Positions 7,498 through 35,898 of a stretch of DNA of 64,000 bases are shown here, one piece after another; positions within the stretch are counted from its first letter, which is position 1; each line of letters begins with the position of its first letter. Below the pieces are notes generated by a model. The model made no database searches. It was not told where the DNA came from and saw only the letters and a list, made by a program, of their open reading frames with translations. A program made the translations under genes and the position numbers. This stretch comes from Erysipelotrichaceae bacterium RD49 (GTDB lineage Bacteria; Bacillota_I; Bacilli_A; Erysipelotrichales; Erysipelotrichaceae): positions 1-64,000 of the forward strand of contig JADGIS010000001.1 of NCBI GenBank assembly GCA_015233825.1. The letters run 5' to 3'.

Positions 7498-7820
7498 AAT
7501 TTGATCTCGTTTCCGGTAAACAACCTTTTCTAGATTATTTTATCCGCTTTCCTTCTCTCCTTCTGATGGGTAGCCTGCCATATTCAAAACCGTTTCAACA
7601 GCTTTTCTTTTGGTGAGTTTACAGACTGGATTCAGGACTCAAAAAGAAAAGCGGTTTCCAAAGATTTGCCCTGCTCTTACAACTCGCATCTAAGTCAGGC
7701 ACCAAGACCAGTCTCCTCAAACAGAAATTGAAAAAGGCAAAGAACAAAGCCAGAAAACAAGCTATTCTATTCCATATCTATATGTATCTATATGTCTTCT
7801 CTGGATACGGAGGTGAAAAA
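7498..7820. other. Intergenic region with long inverted repeat
   Basis: No gene seen. The only structure is an inverted repeat GCTTTTCTTTT (7601-7611) / AAAAGAAAAGC (7642-7652), extended by outer AACCG/CGGTT arms. It is not followed by a T run, so it does not look like a terminator. Confidence 0.4.
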
Positions 7821-8036
7821 ATGAAAAATCCAAACGCAAAGTCATCCCGCCAGGTCCAGCTCAGCAAATTCCTGGCCAAAATTCTGCGCCATCCTCCTGA
7901 GCTGATCGGCCTCGAGCTGGATGACCAAGGGTGGGCTGCTATGGATGAGATGCTGGTAAAAGCAGCCAAGCCGGATTTAACGCACCAAATGCTGGAAAAA
8001 ATCGTAGCGGACGATGAAAAAGGCCGCTGTCAATGA
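7821..8036 (+). pseudogene. kptA: kptA fragment (RNA 2'-phosphotransferase N-terminus)
   Basis: The 71 codons from an ATG with a strong GGAGGTG site match the N-terminal half of KptA/Tpt1, which removes a 2'-phosphate from RNA using NAD: the SKFLAKILRHPPELIGLELD segment and GWAAMDEML, then IVADDEKGR. At that point the frame runs into the left end of the IscB element, whose bases supply the TGA. The rest, including the NQGHS-type NAD-binding region and about 110 residues of the usual 180, is absent from this locus. It is also not found on the far side of the element, so there was a deletion as well as an insertion. The product should be inactive. Confidence 0.85.
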
Positions 8037-8294
8037 CCCCACCCAAACTGCCTTGCAATTTGGATGGGGCTTGAAATAAGAAGCTTTCATGCATCTGTTT
8101 CAAGCCTGATTGACTAGCCTGAGTCTTAACTGACTACGTTATTTGAGAATCAACCTTAAACAAGTTGAAATAGGCACTCCAGGATGTTCAGCTCTAGTCC
8201 TGGACTCTGCGGACCTGTATTAAACAGTACTGAGGTCAGGTGCAGTGTGCAGGTCAACAAACCTCTTATAACATTGGCGAAGGCTGGTGCTTCA
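8036..8294 (+). ncRNA. Putative omega RNA scaffold of IscB, copy 1
   Basis: In known IscB systems the guide RNA scaffold (omega RNA) is encoded just 5' of iscB and its guide comes from DNA flanking the left end. Here the region from the left-end hairpin to GGTGCTTCA is nearly identical to the copy-2 region, although it has no reading frame, and similarity drops sharply after that point. Several helices can be drawn, including GAAGC (about 8080) with GCTTC (about 8289) as a possible closing or pseudoknot pairing. RNA ends and structure are inferred, not shown. Confidence 0.65.
8037..8069 (+). repeat. Left-end hairpin of element copy 1
   Basis: CCCCACCCAAA pairs with TTTGGATGGGG around a TGCCTTGCAA loop, with one mismatch region. 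It sits just inside the left boundary and has the same arms as the right-end hairpin, as expected for a TnpA recognition hairpin. Confidence 0.7.
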
Positions 8295-8351
8295 ACTACC
8301 TTTTAGGACGCTTTATTATCCTAAAACGAATTATTACCTTGGAGGTACAAT

Positions 8352-9644
8352 ATGGTTTACGTATTAGATGTAGATGGCAAGCCCTTAATGCCTACCCAAA
8401 GGCACGGCAAGGTGCGCCACCTTTTAAATGACAAGAAAGCCAAAGTGGTAAAGAAAAATCCATTTACCATCAAGCTTTTATATGATTCAACTAGATATAC
8501 CCAGCCCGTCACTCTTGGAGTAGACGCTGGTTCTAAACAGATTGGTCTAAGTGCTTCGAGTGAAGATAAAGAACTGCTGGCATGGGATGTCCAGAACAGA
8601 ACAGATATCACTGAGCTGATCTCGACTAGAAGAGAAGCGCGCAGAGCAAGAAGAAACCGCAAGACAAGATACAGAGCGCCACGCTTCAATAACCGAGTGC
8701 GTACGAAGCATAAAGGCTGGCTTGCTCCTTCGGTTGAACACAAGATTGATACTCATCTTCATTGCATTGAAGAAGTCCAAAAACTTTTGCCTGTAACCAG
8801 GATCGTGGTGGAGACAGCTTCTTTTGATACGCAGAAATTAAAAAATCCAGAGATTTCTGGAACTGAATACCAAAATGGTGATCAAAAAGGATTCTGGAAT
8901 GTTCGTGAGTATGTTTTATTTCGAGACAACCACGAATACCAGCACTGCCATGGCAAGAAAAAAGATCCTATCTTAAATATTCATCACATCGAAAGCCGAA
9001 AGACTGGCGGCAATTCGCCTTCCAACCTGATTACGCTTTGCGAAACGTGCCATAACGAATACCACAAAAAGATCAAGTCAGAAAAGATCAAAGGTCCAGA
9101 AGACTTCAACCTGCCCAAGCGGACTAAGCCGTATCGAGATGCGGCTTTCATGGGCATCATGCGCTGGACCCTGCTGGAACGATTAAAAGAAGCCAACCCC
9201 GATATCGAAGTCATCAATACCTATGGCTACCTGACCAAGAACAAAAGAATTGAATTGAACCTAGCTAAAGTGCATTACAATGACGCCTATTGTATTGCAG
9301 GCAATCTCAATGCCAAGCCGTTAAAACAATGCCTGTACCTCAAGAAGATCAGAAGGCATAACCGCCAGATTCATAAGTTCAACTTCATCAAAGGACATAA
9401 ACGCAAGAACAACCAGGCACCACATATGGTTGGCGGGTTCTGTCTTTTTGATAAAGTTCGGTACAAAGGGCAAGAGTGCTTTATTACAGGGCGCAGACAG
9501 TGCGGCGCTTTTACTTTAAAAACCTTTTGGGGACAAAAGATTAAAGATGGTGCTTCGATGAAAAAGCTGATTCTTGTAGAAAGAACCAGCGGATACATGA
9601 AAGAAACAGCAACTCGGCAATTCCTGGCCACCCAAACCGTATAA
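8352..9644 (+). CDS. iscB: IscB RNA-guided nuclease (RuvC + HNH)
   Basis: The 430-residue protein has the whole IscB layout: an N-terminal PLMP domain (PLMP at 11-14), RuvC-I with Asp58 in LGVDAGS, an Arg-rich bridge helix (93-115), RuvC-II with Glu154 in IVVETASF, and an HNH domain (about 194-240; HH211-212, Asn225). RuvC-III follows with His308/Asp311 in HYNDAYCIAG, and then a C-terminal DNA-recognition domain. IscB is the family from which Cas9 arose and cuts DNA guided by omega RNA. One oddity: the first zinc CxxC of the HNH domain reads YQHC (Tyr197), while the broken second copy still encodes CQHC. C230 and C233 are kept. The ATG follows GGAGG, and the stop codon lies inside the right-end hairpin. 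Confidence 0.93.
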   Translation: MVYVLDVDGKPLMPTQRHGKVRHLLNDKKAKVVKKNPFTIKLLYDSTRYTQPVTLGVDAGSKQIGLSASSEDKELLAWDVQNRTDITELISTRREARRARRNRKTRYRAPRFNNRVRTKHKGWLAPSVEHKIDTHLHCIEEVQKLLPVTRIVVETASFDTQKLKNPEISGTEYQNGDQKGFWNVREYVLFRDNHEYQHCHGKKKDPILNIHHIESRKTGGNSPSNLITLCETCHNEYHKKIKSEKIKGPEDFNLPKRTKPYRDAAFMGIMRWTLLERLKEANPDIEVINTYGYLTKNKRIELNLAKVHYNDAYCIAGNLNAKPLKQCLYLKKIRRHNRQIHKFNFIKGHKRKNNQAPHMVGGFCLFDKVRYKGQECFITGRRQCGAFTLKTFWGQKIKDGASMKKLILVERTSGYMKETATRQFLATQTV

Positions 9645-9659
9645 CGGTTTGGATGGGGT
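9629..9659 (+). repeat. Right-end hairpin of element copy 1
   Basis: CCACCCAAACCG pairs with CGGTTTGGATGG around TATAA, with one mismatch. The last codons and stop of iscB form part of it. It mirrors the left-end hairpin. Confidence 0.7.
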
Positions 9660-9674
9660 ACCCTTGCCTAACAT

Positions 9675-9992
9675 ATGGACTCGATCTTTACGCGCAAAGT
9701 CTTTGAAGACTGTCCATGCGAATACAGGCGTCAGATTCTGCAGGTTCTGCTTCGCGTGGCTTTTGAAAAGCCAGCCTTAACGATCACGCAGGCAAGTCTT
9801 CAAACCGAACTGCAGGATCAGTATGGTCCTCAAGCACCTTTTGGCGTAAGCGCCGAAGACCAGAATCACCAGTTCTACAACGTTGCCTTTCTGTTTCGCA
9901 GGTTTGATTTGGATCATATTCGTATAGAAGAATTTTTCCGGTTTTTAAGAGCCGGACATCATGAGACCAAAGTTGTCGTTGTCTACAACTAA
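9675..9992 (+). CDS. Small unknown protein, 5'-truncated paralog of next gene
   Basis: Function not recognised. The 105 residues align without gaps to residues 31 onward of the next gene's product: MDSIFTRKVFEDC with MDPWFAQMVLDHC, then a shared LTI, and finally AEDQNHQFY with AEDQNHNHY. It therefore lacks about 30 N-terminal residues. Its ATG lies in the CATATG at the element's right end, with no good ribosome site, so the true 5' end was lost when the IscB element arrived or in a linked deletion. It extends about 26 residues further at the C-terminus than the paralog. It is probably not expressed normally. Confidence 0.55.
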   Translation: MDSIFTRKVFEDCPCEYRRQILQVLLRVAFEKPALTITQASLQTELQDQYGPQAPFGVSAEDQNHQFYNVAFLFRRFDLDHIRIEEFFRFLRAGHHETKVVVVYN

Positions 9993-10116: not shown

Positions 10117-10443
10117 ATGACCAAACAGATTTCAAAAGAACTGGATCCAAAATGTAACCCAGAACTCGATCAAGCGATCAAAAAAGCTATCGATGAGGCA
10201 ACTTTTATGGATCCCTGGTTTGCCCAGATGGTCCTGGATCACTGTACTGACCAGGAACGCAACGAGATTGCCCAAGGCATTCTGCGCCCCATCGTCGGCA
10301 AAGACGATTTAACAATCATCTCAACAAAGACCAAAAGACTGTTGGGGGATGGCTATGATGCCCTCACAGCGCCAATTGAATTCTTCGCTGAAGACCAGAA
10401 TCATAACCATTACCACATCGTCTGGCCATTTTCAGGCCGCTAA
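10117..10443 (+). CDS. Small unknown protein with AEDQNH motif
   Basis: A 108-residue soluble protein with no recognised family. The ATG has a good site (AAAGGAATTTT). It shares with the gene upstream an LTI core and the motif AEDQNHxxYxxxxxF near the C-terminus, so the two are paralogs and this is the complete one. The N-terminal half is acidic and probably helical. A bidirectional terminator follows about 50 bases after the stop. It may once have been co-transcribed with kptA, but that cannot be shown here. Confidence 0.65.
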   Translation: MTKQISKELDPKCNPELDQAIKKAIDEATFMDPWFAQMVLDHCTDQERNEIAQGILRPIVGKDDLTIISTKTKRLLGDGYDALTAPIEFFAEDQNHNHYHIVWPFSGR

Positions 10444-21943: not shown

Positions 21944-21959
21944 CTGGTCTTTTTCGTTT

Positions 21960-22060
21960 GCAGCGGGATGCGAAAAACAGACCGCAAGGATATCTTTTCG
22001 TCATCGGCTCAACTCCCCGTTGCCGATGCACTTAACGCCTGTTTTCCTACTCTGTCGGGC
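21960..22060 (-). ncRNA. Tetrahydrofolate (THF) riboswitch
   Basis: Read on the minus strand the leader contains the conserved blocks of the THF riboswitch class in order: GAGTAG, GCGTTAAGTG, GGGGAGTTG, ACGAAA, CCTTGCGGTCTG and GCATCCCGCT, with ATCGGC/GCCGAT forming an internal helix. The class binds reduced folates and usually controls folT or folE. It lies between a consensus promoter and folT, so folate should switch off folate import. Confidence 0.88.
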
Positions 22061-31866: not shown

Positions 31867-32030
31867 ACAATCAATCCAGTTTTCAAGCTGAATTCTTTAT
31901 GATCTTAGTCCAACCTTGCCTTGCAGAGCAAGCATTAACGGACTGTATCTTTGCAGAATGTCATAAAATTTATCATTTTGAACGACAAAAACAAAGAAGA
32001 GCAGTTTGAGATGCTTTTCGAATGTCAATG

Positions 32031-32289
32031 ACCCCACCCAAACTGCCTTGCAATTTGGACGGGGCTTGAAATAAGAAGCTTTCATGCATCTGTTTCAAGC
32101 CTGATTGACTAGCCTGAGTCTTAACTGACTCCGTGATTTGAGAACCAACCCTAAACAAGTTGGAACAGGCACTCCAGTGATGTTCAACTCCAGTCCTGGC
32201 CCCTGCGGATTGGCATGAAACAGTACTGAGGTCAGGTGCAGTGTGCAGGTCAACAAACCTCTTAGAACATTGGCGAAGGCTGATGCTTC
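32031..32289 (+). ncRNA. Putative omega RNA scaffold, copy 2
   Basis: Nearly the same non-coding sequence as upstream of the intact iscB, with scattered substitutions and one single-base insertion. Similarity holds up to TGCTTCA and is then lost, although a short spacer to the iscB start remains. That the non-coding part ends its similarity at the same point as the proposed RNA supports a functional RNA. Confidence 0.55.
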
Positions 32290-32350
32290 ACCCACTTCTC
32301 TGGAACGCTTTTAAGCTTACGAGATGCATCACTCGTTCGAGGACAGGAGT

Positions 32351-33648
32351 ATGGTTTATGGATTCGATATGGACGACACACCTTTAATGCCGACTGAAAG
32401 GCATGGCAAAGTCTGCCACCTTTTATCCGCCACCTTTTAAAGGAAAGAAAAGCCAAAGTAGTAAAGAAAACACCGTTTACCATCCAGCTTTTAGACGACT
32501 GAACACGATAGACCCAGCGCATCACTCTTGGCGTAGACGCTGGTTCCAAACAGATGGGTTTGAGTGCTTCAAGTGAAGACAAAGAACTTCTTGCCTGGGA
32601 TGTCCAGAACACGACAGATATCACTGAACTGATCTCTACAAGAAGAGAAGCACGCCATACAAGACGAAATCGCAAAACTCGATACAGCGCCCCACGCTTC
32701 AATAACCGAGTGCGTACTAAACATAAAGGATGGCTTGCTCCCTCTATTGAATACAAGATTGACACTCATCTTCATTGCATTGAAGAAGTCCAAAAGCTTT
32801 TGCCTGTAACCAGGATTGTTGTGGAAACAGCGTCTTTTAATACGCAGAAATTAAAGAATCCTGATCTTTCTGGAACTGGGTATCAAAATGGTGATCAAAA
32901 GGGTTCTGAAATGTTCGTGAGTATGTTTTATTTCGAGACCATCACGAATGCCAGCACTGCCATGGCAAAAAGAAAGATCCGGTTTTAAATGTTCATCGTA
33001 TCGAAAGCCGAAAGACTGGCGGGAATTCACCTTCCAACCTGATTACGCTTTGCGAAATGTGTCATAACGAATACCATGACAAGATCAAATCAGGCCAGAT
33101 CAAAGGTCCAGAAGACTTCAAGCCGCCGAAGCGGGCTAAGCCGTATCGAGACGCTGCTTTCATGGGCATCATGCGCTGGACGCTGCTGGAACGATTAAAA
33201 GCAGCCAACCCTGATCTTGAAGTGGTCAATACTTATGGCTACCTGACCAAAAACAAACGGATTGAACTGAACCTCGCTAAAGAGCATTCCAACGATGCGC
33301 ATTGTATTGCAGGCAATCTCAATGCCAAGCCATTAAAACTATGCCTGTATCTCAAAAAGATCAGAAGGCATAACCGCCAGATTCATCAATTCAATTTCAT
33401 CAAAGGACATAAGCGTAAAAGCAATCAAACCGACCATATGGTTGGCGGCTTCTGCCTCTTTGATAAGGTCAAATTCGAAGGACAGGACTGCTTGATTACT
33501 GGACGCAGAAAAAGCGGATCCTTTGTTCTGAAAACTTGATCAGGGCAAAAAATCCATAGTGCTGTTTCCATAAGGAAATTAGTTCTGATCGAAAGAGCGA
33601 ATGGATCCTTAAAAGAAACAAGAATTCGGCAATTCCTGGCCACCTAAA
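32351..33648 (+). pseudogene. iscB: iscB pseudogene
   Basis: The sequence follows intact iscB throughout but is broken several times: a repeat of CCACCTTTTA near 32418-32440, in-frame TGA and TAG near 32500-32512 (where copy 1 reads DSTRYT), and a frameshift near 32900 before the HNH domain. The remaining frames (about 32554-32988 and 33057-33539) keep RuvC-I DAGS, the bridge helix, IVVETASF and the RuvC-III region. In the proper frame the HNH zinc pair is CQHC, the expected form, unlike copy 1. The product cannot be made. Confidence 0.9.
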
Positions 33649-33710
33649 CCGTATAACGATTTGGATGGGGTATCCTTGCCTAACATATGAAGAACTGCCT
33701 GCATAAAGAC

Positions 33711-33744
33711 AAAATAAAAACCCTTCAGGTAAGAAACCCGAAGG
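33711..33744 (-). terminator. Terminator of tRNA-Ile/tRNA-Ala pair 1
   Basis: On the minus strand CCTTCGGGT-ttctt-ACCTGAAGG is followed by GTTTTTATTTTG, just after tRNA-Ala(TGC). Confidence 0.88.
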
Positions 33745-33757
33745 ATTGATTACAAAA

Positions 33758-33833
33758 TGGTGGAGCGTAGGAGGATCGAACTCCTGACCCCCTGCGTGCA
33801 AAGCAGGTGCTCTCCCAGCTGAGCTAACACCCC
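33758..33833 (-). tRNA. tRNA-Ala (TGC), pair 1
   Basis: 76 bases with encoded CCA. Anticodon loop TTTGCAC between CCTGC and GCAGG, giving anticodon TGC. Identical to the second copy 1.8 kb away. It follows tRNA-Ile by about 20 bases in the same transcript. Confidence 0.96.
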
Positions 33834-33852
33834 ACATCAATAAGTCAAAAAA

Positions 33853-33929
33853 TGGTGGGCCTGAATGGACTCGAACCAGCGACCTCATCCTTATCAGGGA
33901 TGCGCTCTAACCACCTGAGCTACAGGCCC
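33853..33929 (-). tRNA. tRNA-Ile (GAT), pair 1
   Basis: 77 bases with encoded CCA. Anticodon stem CATCC/GGATG encloses CTGATAA, giving anticodon GAT. T-loop GGTTCGAGTCC. It is first in the Ile-Ala transcript. Confidence 0.96.
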
Positions 33930-33948
33930 GTTTCTTGACTGCCTAAAT

Positions 33949-33977
33949 AATATAACAGATCGATTTTCGAAGGTCAA
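33949..33977 (-). promoter_or_regulatory. Promoter of tRNA pair 1
   Basis: On the minus strand TTGACC (33972-33977), a 17-base spacer and TATATT (33949-33954), about 20 bases before tRNA-Ile. Confidence 0.8.
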
Positions 33978-34300
33978 ACCCTAATTTGAATTTTTTTCAA
34001 TAATTTTTTTATTCGTAGAATTCCGCTTTATTTAAAGTGCTATTTTATAAAAATAAATTTAATTTCTACTGCTGGTTTGCAGAGAATCCCCTCCAAAAAC
34101 AAGGCTGATTTCATTTTACGAGACAGGTTAATATTCAAAAAAGCCAGCTGTCTATACGGATACGGTCCAGCTGGCTTTTAAAAATTTTTGAACAGGCAAG
34201 AAATGTTTCCATCATTTCATCCCCTTTACAAAACGAAAACCAGCTTTTACCATACAGCTCTCAAAGCCCTTTACTCAAAGCAGCGCTTTCCTTGCTTGCT
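33978..34300. other. AT-rich intergenic region with a terminator
   Basis: No gene seen. It contains the hairpin AAAAGCCAGCTG...CAGCTGGCTTTT (34137-34179) followed by AAAAATTTTT, a bidirectional terminator that probably ends the aldo/keto reductase transcript. Confidence 0.6.
34137..34190. terminator. Terminator of the aldo/keto reductase gene
   Basis: Stem AAAAGCCAGCTG/CAGCTGGCTTTT with A/T runs on both sides, about 110 bases past the reductase stop. Confidence 0.75.
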
Positions 34301-35481: not shown

Positions 35482-35511
35482 AAAAAAACTCCAAGCACTA
35501 GGCTTGGAGAT
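35482..35511 (-). terminator. Terminator of tRNA pair 2
   Basis: On the minus strand CTCCAAGC-ctagt-GCTTGGAG is followed by seven T. Confidence 0.9.
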
Positions 35512-35522
35512 TAATTTCATAA

Positions 35523-35598
35523 TGGTGGAGCGTAGGAGGATCGAACTCCTGACCCCCTGCGTGCAAAGCAGGTGCTCTCCCAGCTGAGCTAACACCCC
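35523..35598 (-). tRNA. tRNA-Ala (TGC), pair 2
   Basis: Same sequence as the pair-1 tRNA-Ala: anticodon TGC, encoded CCA. Confidence 0.96.
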
Positions 35599-35621
35599 AC
35601 ATGAAATAAGTCAAAAAATAA

Positions 35622-35698
35622 TGGTGGGCCTGAATGGACTCGAACCAGCGACCTCATCCTTATCAGGGATGCGCTCTAACCACCTGAGCTACAGGCCC
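35622..35698 (-). tRNA. tRNA-Ile (GAT), pair 2
   Basis: Same sequence as the pair-1 tRNA-Ile: anticodon GAT, encoded CCA. The Ile-Ala spacer differs from pair 1 only by small changes. Confidence 0.96.
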
Positions 35699-35717
35699 AT
35701 TTCTTGACTGCCCGATA

Positions 35718-35746
35718 ATCATATCAGAGCTGAAGATCGATGTCAA
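35718..35746 (-). promoter_or_regulatory. Promoter of tRNA pair 2
   Basis: On the minus strand a consensus TTGACA (35741-35746), a 17-base spacer and TATGAT (35718-35723). It is closer to consensus than the promoter of pair 1, so this pair may be the stronger one. Confidence 0.88.
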
Positions 35747-35898
35747 CCAGAAATTTCAATTTTTCATCACCTGATTTGCAAATGGTGGAATTGGCATCCC
35801 TGTCTGAACTCGACTCATTGAGTATACCGCATTTGGCTCATATAGCAAGCCCGAACTCAAAATTTTTATAGGCATTTATAACAAGCGTATAAAAGGTA

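What the first reader, a model, noticed from the sequence alone, without database searches (positions are those of the whole stretch)
8028..9677. Intact IscB RNA-guided nuclease in an IS605-like element without transposase
The protein has PLMP, RuvC-I/II/III, bridge helix and HNH parts in the order of IscB, the family ancestral to Cas9. Upstream is a conserved non-coding region that ends near GGTGCTTCA and looks like omega RNA. Both ends carry paired hairpins. No tnpA is present, so mobility depends on a helper elsewhere. Family properties are established; the RNA is inferred.
Basis: partly seen in the sequence, partly recalled or inferred. Interest (0 to 1): 0.75.

Follow-up and report, generated by a model that had tools for sequence, protein, structure and literature searches.

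The report
IscB element with switched target cassette
This is one of about 27 full or partial copies, in one bacterial genome, of a mobile element carrying an ancestor-like relative of Cas9 and its guide RNA; comparing copies suggests that the part reading the target site is exchanged as a block, and that related elements often land right at the start codons of host genes.

Summary
Confirmed: window 8029-9674 is a HEARO/IscB (OMEGA) element with a complete omegaRNA (RF02033, 117 bits), a 430-aa IscB (guided_IscB, 371 bits, cutoff 175), hairpin ends and no tnpA inside. It is one of 27 places in this 2.97-Mb genome; six are full-length and open. 'Intact' needs a caveat: this copy has Tyr at HNH zinc-ligand Cys196 (Cys in 45 of 45 other aligned IscBs), and its flanks come from two different broken genes.

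(1) Left flank (guide) varies; right flank is ATGG in 8/8 copies with one C-terminal type and ATGA in 13/13 with the other. The types differ mainly in the TAM-interacting domain plus right end, so TAM and transposon end appear to switch as one linked cassette; a cleaner independent case is in a Sutterella genome. Residue 384 tracks TAM base 4 (S/T with A; R/K/D with G) across relatives, with few exceptions. (2) In relatives the right-flank ATG is usually a host start codon (28/38 against 55/194 control sites), often with a Shine-Dalgarno in the guide. The window's ATGG subfamily does not show this (2/9). Inference: host promoter and leader supply the guide RNA. Cleavage, expression and mobility are untested.

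The parts
8029..9674 (+). whole HEARO/IscB element (1646 bp; last base T could be host)
   Evidence: ends set by alignment of own-genome copies
8013..8028 (+). predicted 16-nt guide of the omegaRNA, in host DNA (inside the kptA fragment)
   Evidence: sequence directly 5' of the scaffold differs between the 23 located left ends; guide length of about 16-17 nt from PMC9640706, passages, and recall
8029..8293 (+). omegaRNA scaffold (HEARO, RF02033)
   Evidence: 117.2 bits, complete model
8037..8069 (+). left-end hairpin
   Evidence: DNA fold, z -3.58
8352..9644 (+). iscB, 430 aa
   Evidence: model Z 25-26 to OgeuIscB, OrufIscB, DtIsrB
8937..8939 (+). codon 196 TAC (Tyr) in place of the first Cys of the HNH CxxC pair
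   Evidence: Cys in 45 of 45 other aligned proteins; one other own copy, L060, has TAC
9426..9674 (+). exchanged cassette: TAM-interacting domain (from about aa 359) plus right end
   Evidence: between-type identity 0.75/0.69 at element positions 1401-1600 against 0.84-0.91 at 401-1400
9501..9503 (+). codon 384 (Cys here; Arg in 5 of 8 ATGG copies, Ser in 12 of 13 ATGA copies), proposed reader of TAM base 4
9628..9656 (+). right-end hairpin
   Evidence: DNA fold, z -3.05
9675..9678 (+). right-flank ATGG, predicted TAM / insertion motif
   Evidence: ATGG in 8 of 8 copies of this type
7821..8036 (+). left host gene: 5' third of kptA (RNA 2'-phosphotransferase), cut off by the element
   Evidence: PF01885 positions 1-64 of 177; no other PF01885 match in the genome
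9675..9992 (+). right host ORF, 105 aa, probably the 3' part of a gene paralogous to 10117-10443
   Evidence: its Met1 aligns with Met31 of the neighbour, 36% identity over 75 positions
32024..33685 (+). second copy in the window, iscB broken; hybrid (type-A right-end hairpin, type-B TAM domain, flank ATGA)

Best explanation
The feature is a non-autonomous IS200/IS605-type HEARO (OMEGA) element. A transcript that begins in host DNA carries the last ~16 nt of left flank as guide, then the omegaRNA scaffold; IscB binds it and cuts the empty donor site (left flank followed by the ATGG that now sits at the right end), so the element is copied back by repair after a Y1 transposase supplied in trans has excised it. 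In this genome the element family exists in two target types that differ mainly in a linked C-terminal cassette, TAM-interacting domain plus transposon right end, which goes with ATGG or ATGA. This particular copy is of the ATGG type, sits at a rearranged site, and its HNH domain is probably impaired. Shown here: anatomy, copy number, ends, flank motifs, the cassette pattern and the missing Cys. Inferred: transcription, cleavage, mobilisation, that the flank motif is the TAM, and the order of events.
For: omegaRNA and protein models; fold matches to OrufIscB, DtIsrB, OgeuIscB at Z 25-26; catalytic positions D58, E154, H212, H308, D311 present (alignments; the catalytic residues are named in PMC9640706, passages). 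27 places in the genome, six full-length and open; 19 HEARO matches, 11 over the cutoff. Left flank variable, right flank ATG[A/G] in 26 of 26 located right ends. TI type and flank agree in 8/8 ATGG and 13/13 ATGA copies; two hybrids separate the right-end hairpin from TAM base 4. Y1 transposase genes elsewhere.
Against: No expression or cleavage data. C196Y may make this copy unable to cut both strands. Its TAM domain has C384 instead of the R384 of five sister copies. The flanks seem to be from different genes, so the guide need not match an existing empty site; the closest other genomic match has one mismatch and no ATGG after it. At least one of the genome's tnpA genes lies beside a TnpB-type gene (PF01385), in an element whose end is similar but not the same, so the helper is not identified. 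The two types also differ in the left end and in the 3' part of the omegaRNA in many copies, and three type-A copies are mixed in the first half of the TAM domain, so the block is not perfectly clean here.
Confidence: 0.8

Rival explanations
1. The window copy is a dying remnant: a formerly mobile IscB element now decaying, with no activity of its own.
For: C196Y, replacements V210I, G244E, E307V found in no other own copy, 21 of the 27 places are broken, partial or diverged, flanks rearranged.
Against: The frame is open over 430 codons, RuvC and HNH catalytic residues are present, the omegaRNA is complete and the best scoring in the genome, and only 5 private changes in the gene (2 silent, 3 replacing) are seen.
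Confidence: 0.4
2. The nuclease has been adopted by the host as an RNA-guided regulator or nickase, which would explain the lack of tnpA and the altered HNH zinc site.
For: RuvC catalytic residues are kept while an HNH zinc ligand is lost; nuclease-altered relatives used as regulators are known for TnpB (recalled).
Against: High copy number with many broken copies; no more than weak HNH-region matches in four same-genus genomes, which are 58-92% complete; a guide in a broken gene with no other perfect match in the genome.
Confidence: 0.05
3. The start-codon association is only survivorship: the motif is ATGA/ATGG, insertions inside genes are weeded out, and the remaining intergenic sense-strand sites are mostly start codons; it has nothing to do with expressing the guide.
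For: In this genome ATGG copies are not at start codons more than control sites (2 of 9 against 19 of 60), yet they persist. Start contexts are naturally rich in ATGA (recalled).
Against: A different IscB lineage ends at AGGAGG just upstream of apparent start codons in three of three located ends, so two motifs lead to the same place; the insertions separate important genes (rplI, rnpA, atpA, rlmN) from their upstream leader, which weeding should not favour.
Confidence: 0.4
4. The chimeric flanks at the window copy are an assembly error across a repeated element, not a real rearrangement.
For: Draft genome of 308 contigs with ~27 copies of the repeat; some contigs end in a copy (C65, C268, C269).
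Against: The other halves of the two genes are not found: there is no other PF01885 match in the genome, and no second place carries the missing start of the right-hand ORF.
Confidence: 0.25

Closest known systems
OMEGA IscB nucleases (OgeuIscB, OrufIscB) of HEARO elements
   Same: PLMP, split RuvC, bridge helix, HNH, WED/TI domains; 5' omegaRNA of the HEARO family; guide from the left flank
   Different: ATGG/ATGA flank instead of the NNRR TAM of OgeuIscB (PMC9640706, passages) and NTAAA of OrufIscB (PMC13180657, passages); Tyr for an HNH zinc Cys in this copy; linked TAM/right-end cassette
IsrB nickases (DtIsrB, BbIsrB)
   Same: TAMs of the NTGA and NTGG kind; in DtIsrB Gln326 reads base 4 and Q326R accepts ATGG (PMC9581776, passages); same overall fold, Z 26
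   Different: IsrB lacks HNH; the A/G switch there was engineered or seen between distant orthologues, here it occurs between closely similar copies in one genome
IS200/IS605 elements with TnpB
   Same: Y1-transposase-type hairpin ends, RNA-guided nuclease cutting the empty site (recalled)
   Different: TnpB's guide is at the 3' end from the right flank (recalled), so its RNA can start inside the element; IscB's guide is 5' and needs upstream transcription
PAM-interacting-domain exchange in Cas9 (recalled)
   Same: specificity changed by replacing the C-terminal domain
   Different: here the same stretch also holds the transposon end, so nuclease and insertion specificity would move together

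Membership tests
IscB (OMEGA nuclease) | protein scores as IscB, PLMP + RuvC with HNH | tested here: met
   NF040563 370.9 bits, cutoff 175; RRXRR and HNH
IscB (OMEGA nuclease) | RuvC (D61, E193, H340, D343 of OgeuIscB) and HNH (H247) catalytic residues | tested here: met
   D58, E154, H308, D311, H212 by alignment (residues named in PMC9640706, passages)
IscB (OMEGA nuclease) | HNH zinc pair CxxC ... CxxC/H | tested here: not met
   Tyr196 in place of Cys in this copy; Cys in most sister copies. Not family-defining on its own, but it bears on activity
IscB (OMEGA nuclease) | omegaRNA directly upstream | tested here: met
   RF02033 117.2 bits, full length
IscB (OMEGA nuclease) | RNA-guided cleavage next to a TAM | not testable with these tools
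   needs biochemistry
IS200/IS605-type element | hairpins near both ends and a fixed flank motif on one side only | tested here: met
   hairpins; motif on right side only
IS200/IS605-type element | own Y1 transposase | tested here: not met
   no PF01797 match inside; matches elsewhere in genome. IscB/HEARO without TnpA nearby is reported as usual (PMC9755519, passages)
Insertion at host start codons (pattern seen in relatives) | right-flank ATG is the start of a host gene | tested here: not met
   window ORF 9675 looks internal; ATGG subfamily 2 of 9 against 19 of 60 control sites

The most novel reading that the evidence does not exclude
IscB elements carry their target specificity as one exchangeable cassette: the coding stretch for the TAM-interacting domain runs straight into the transposon right end, so a single recombination event changes both what TnpA inserts next to and what IscB accepts as TAM, keeping the two matched (ATGA to ATGG by S/T to R/K at one hairpin-tip residue). 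The ancestral ATG-containing motif places elements between a host gene's Shine-Dalgarno and start codon, so the host promoter and leader make the guide-omegaRNA; switching to ATGG released the window's subfamily from start codons.
Probability: 0.5. Interest if true: 0.8.

Novelty: new variant of a known kind. Interest (0 to 1): 0.58.

Why it matters
IscB is the presumed ancestor of Cas9. Two open questions become testable: how an RNA-guided nuclease and the transposase it serves keep their target motifs matched when the motif changes, and how an element whose guide lies outside its own 5' end gets that guide transcribed. The natural ATGA/ATGG pairs, in Sutterella differing almost only in the last ~60 residues and the right end, are also ready-made material for working out how IscB reads its TAM.

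Tried and rejected
Considered and dropped: that ATGA in GTCAATGA at the left end is the target motif (it is inside the element: GTCAAT is constant in 23 of 23 located left ends while the base before it varies). That all of T/TG before the right-hand ATG is host sequence (it is near-constant within a family and differs between families, so it is more likely the element's own end). That the Cys to Tyr change is private to the window copy (L060 also has TAC). That a second target of the window guide exists in the genome (110 hits at up to 3 mismatches against 29 for the reversed pattern, an excess I did not pursue; the one 1-mismatch site has no ATGG after it). That relatives' kptA genes show the empty site (five of eight fetched kptA genes were aligned at that point and none carries ATGG there; inconclusive). 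Residue-level mapping of position 384 to DtIsrB Gln326: a C-terminal profile found no PDB match at E up to 10, and the structural aligner gives ranges only. A sigma-70 promoter scan gave nothing on the plus strand from 7500 to 9800 (1 site in all, 3.1 expected in shuffles; uninformative). A weaker start-codon test on single-copy elements left many unassigned: 24 of 48 genome loci and 55 of 80 viral loci; its first version had an off-by-one for stop-overlapping junctions and is superseded. The two-criterion test was mended: one locus with a 1-base left flank and one with a masked left flank were taken out, and control sites without enough upstream sequence were dropped (20/32 against 13/194 became 19/30 against 13/179).

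Not found in print: the listings of ten library searches on HEARO or IscB with start codon, ATGA, Shine-Dalgarno, insertion site, domain swapping or recombination showed no paper on these two patterns; some searches listed only the top 15-25 of many. The primary papers I thought most relevant (Weinberg 2009, Altae-Tran 2021, Kapitonov 2015) are not held, so prior description there is possible; that HEARO integrates at ATGA or GTGA is recalled from the first of them.
Full report
WHAT IS THERE. The finding's coordinates hold almost to the base. An ORF of 430 aa at 8352-9644 (+) matches Pfam RRXRR and HNH and the NCBIfam equivalog guided_IscB at 370.9 bits, cutoff 175. Upstream, Rfam HEARO (RF02033) matches 8029-8293 at 117.2 bits, full model, gathering score 83. 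An AlphaFold2 model (mean pLDDT 76.5) aligns best to OrufIscB, DtIsrB and OgeuIscB (Z 25-26). The ends fold as hairpins (z -3.58 and -3.05). There is no Y1 transposase in the element or the window; 12 PF01797 matches, many of them fragments, lie elsewhere in the genome, one intact-looking (139 aa) on the same contig 67 kb away.

MANY COPIES. The genome (G000, 2.97 Mb, 308 contigs, 99% complete) holds 46 match segments to this protein, by my count in 27 places; six places are full-length without stops (88-100% identity), the other 21 broken, partial or diverged. HEARO gives 19 matches, 11 over the cutoff. At least seven ~56-bp remnants consist of left end joined to right end. Four same-genus genomes (58-92% complete) have no real IscB; two had weak matches to the HNH part only. 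The order is probably Erysipelotrichales: three contigs of relative G024 have the lengths of Sharpea porci contigs, e.g. 244,663 bases. IscB proteins of about 50-63% identity are found in many gut and rumen bacteria and in viral contigs (each capped at 80 loci).

ENDS, GUIDE, TAM. In 23 of 23 located left ends the scaffold begins GTCAAT (GTCAATGA in 21) and the sequence before it varies; in 26 of 26 located right ends an ATGA or ATGG follows within two bases of the conserved end. So the guide is the left flank and the TAM the right flank. The T, TG, G or CA before ATG is near-constant within each family and differs between families, so I assign it to the element.

'INTACT' QUALIFIED. All RuvC and HNH catalytic positions are present, but residue 196, first Cys of the HNH CxxC pair, is Tyr here and Cys in 45 of 45 others in the alignment. 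Among own-genome copies only L060 shares the TAC codon. Private changes in the gene are few: 2 silent, 3 replacing. The flanks seem not to belong together: on the left is the 5' third of kptA, with no other PF01885 match in the genome; on the right an ORF whose first Met aligns with Met31 of the adjacent paralogous ORF. The simplest account is a deletion between two element copies; a misassembly is not excluded.

A LINKED CASSETTE. Aligned own-genome copies fall into two types. Between types (7 A, 6 B copies), identity at element positions 401-1400 is 0.84-0.91, about the same as within types (0.81-0.94), then drops to 0.75 and 0.69 at 1401-1600, aa 359-425, where within-type identity is 0.86-0.95. 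It is not the only difference: the 3' end of the omegaRNA and the start of iscB (201-400) and the left end also differ by type in many copies, and three A copies are mixed at 1401-1500. All 8 copies with the A-type TAM domain are followed by ATGG, all 13 with the B type and a readable junction by ATGA; one further B copy (L062) has no right end. Two copies (window 32024-33685 and L063) combine an A-type right-end hairpin with a B-type TAM domain and are followed by TATGA, separating the two determinants. Copies in one genome share ancestry, so these are not independent trials. An independent case is the canine Sutterella genome LR994475: two ATGG and three ATGA elements are 0.88-0.98 identical up to about aa 370, then 0.49 and 0.68 through the TAM domain and right end.

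ONE RESIDUE TRACKS BASE 4. At the tip of the beta2-beta3 hairpin (strands 374-381 and 386-390 in the model) the motif GRRxxG has S or T at position 384 with ATGA, and R, K or D with ATGG. Of 160 relatives, 75 had both motif and junction assigned; after removing near-duplicates the table is ATGA 37 S/T and 1 N, ATGG 6 R/K/D and 1 T (Fisher 5.9e-6); with junctions fixed by copy alignment or stop overlap it is 12:0 against 0:3 (p 0.0022); the three D cases rest on rule-based junctions. Of the 13 order relatives, partly overlapping that set, 11 ATGA have S/T, one ATGA has N and one ATGG has K. In this genome the A type has R384 in 5 copies and C384 in 3, including the window copy; the B type has S384 in 12 of 13 and a gap in L069. 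So this copy may read its TAM less well. The literature fits: in OgeuIscB this hairpin enters the TAM major groove (PMC9640706, passages), and in DtIsrB Gln326 reads base 4 while Q326R accepts ATGG (PMC9581776, passages). The equivalence of 384 and Gln326 was not shown here.

START CODONS. In relatives the junction ATG is typically the start codon of a host gene. Using nine groups with copies enough to fix the junction (29 of 80 genome loci plus 9 copies of G023), 28 of 38 junction ATGs open an ORF of 60 aa or more, against 55 of 194 same-motif sites in their flanks (p 2e-7); adding the demand of an in-frame stop within 35 codons upstream in the joined empty site gives 19 of 30 against 13 of 179 (p 2e-11). 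Groups differ: Duodenibacillus 9 of 9, G023 4 of 9. Single-copy elements with a rule-based junction give 13 of 24 against 161 of 554 (genomes, p 0.012) and 11 of 25 against 129 of 720 (viral contigs, p 0.003); in eight of these iscB's own stop overlaps the start (TGATG), and 7 of the 8 open a long ORF. Of 15 loci fetched from order relatives, 13 had a locatable IscB ORF; with the junction picked by eye as the first suitable ATG after iscB, 12 of 13 open such an ORF (L307 repeats L134). N-terminal family matches confirm starts: rnpA 1-108 on 1-108 and a manganese-dependent pyrophosphatase 1-352 on 2-358, atpA 3-36 on 1-34 from a 36-residue piece, and in 9 of 10 further junction ORFs at least one family alignment begins within ten residues of both ends, e.g. 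ribosomal protein L9 1-147 on 1-147, RlmN, NtrC, LolCE, HisA; the exception is a weak universal-stress match, L159. A Shine-Dalgarno often lies in the guide: rlmN AGGAGGttgtgta| and rplI AGGAGGgttagtt| in this genome; mean pairing energy -5.9 for 27 junctions (21 passing the ORF test plus all six G023 junctions with a left flank) against -3.3 kcal/mol for 2,387 random 20-mers (controls not from G023); 18 of 27 against 34% reach -4. In this genome the ATGA type follows the pattern weakly by ORF length (8 of 15 against 15 of 47, p 0.22) and more clearly with the upstream stop (4 of 9 against 2 of 42, p 0.006); the window's ATGG type does not (2 of 9 against 19 of 60; 1 of 8 against 5 of 60). In Sutterella, however, 3 of 5 ATGG junctions pass the ORF test, so ATGG alone does not explain the loss.

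HOW IT MOST LIKELY WORKS. Established for the family: omegaRNA-guided cutting next to a TAM. Inferred here: because the guide is 5' and outside the element, its transcript must start in host DNA; landing between a promoter-proximal leader and a start codon, in sense, provides that. Supporting this, a second IscB lineage (L054, L056, L038, about 32% identical) ends at AGGAGG 6-9 bases upstream of an apparent start codon in three of three located ends, of four known copies. How the host gene is still translated is open; stop-start overlap would explain some cases.

VERDICT. The window feature is a member of a known family with one damaged zinc site; what it opens, a matched TAM/transposon-end cassette and start-codon landing, I saw in none of the listings of the held library, but key papers are not held.

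Noticed in passing
L054, L056 (G023) and L038 (G029), right ends near locus position 2779: A second IscB lineage, about 32% identical to the window's, ends at ...GATTTAATA|AGGAGG directly upstream of apparent host start codons (one looks to me like anaerobic ribonucleotide reductase) in three of three located ends: its flank motif looks like the Shine-Dalgarno itself. A fourth copy (L314) was fetched but its right end was not located.
   Followed up: partly
G000: C296, C292:2982, C222, C242:31209, C51, C77, C21 (L078-L082, L086, L087): Seven ~56-bp mini-elements made of the left end joined to the right end through their similar hairpin stems, flanked by the usual motif; deletion scars or tiny mobile derivatives.
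   Followed up: partly
33744-33995 and 35509-35764: Two 90%-identical copies of an Ala/Ile tRNA pair region, as found in rRNA operons, with no rRNA match in the window; a broken IscB copy (32024-33685) sits beside the first.
   Followed up: no
21959-22056 (-): Tetrahydrofolate riboswitch, 84 bits.
   Followed up: no
L046, L047, L048 (G023), upstream of iscB: Three IscB copies share iscB and right end with sister copies, but similarity stops at the Shine-Dalgarno, so the usual omegaRNA part is not directly upstream; they may use omegaRNAs of sister copies in trans. Not scanned for HEARO.
   Followed up: no
L028/L089-L092 (G000): TnpA copies with hairpin foot GGGGTACTCTGCCCTTAAG, similar to the IscB element's GGGGTACCCTTGCCTAACA; in L090 and L091 a divergent gene lies beside tnpA, TnpB-type by PF01385 in L091. 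Possible helper, not shown.
   Followed up: partly
10117-10443 and 9675-9992: Two neighbouring paralogous small ORFs of no known family (36% identity), a third related stretch in C88 inside a 430-codon open frame.
   Followed up: partly
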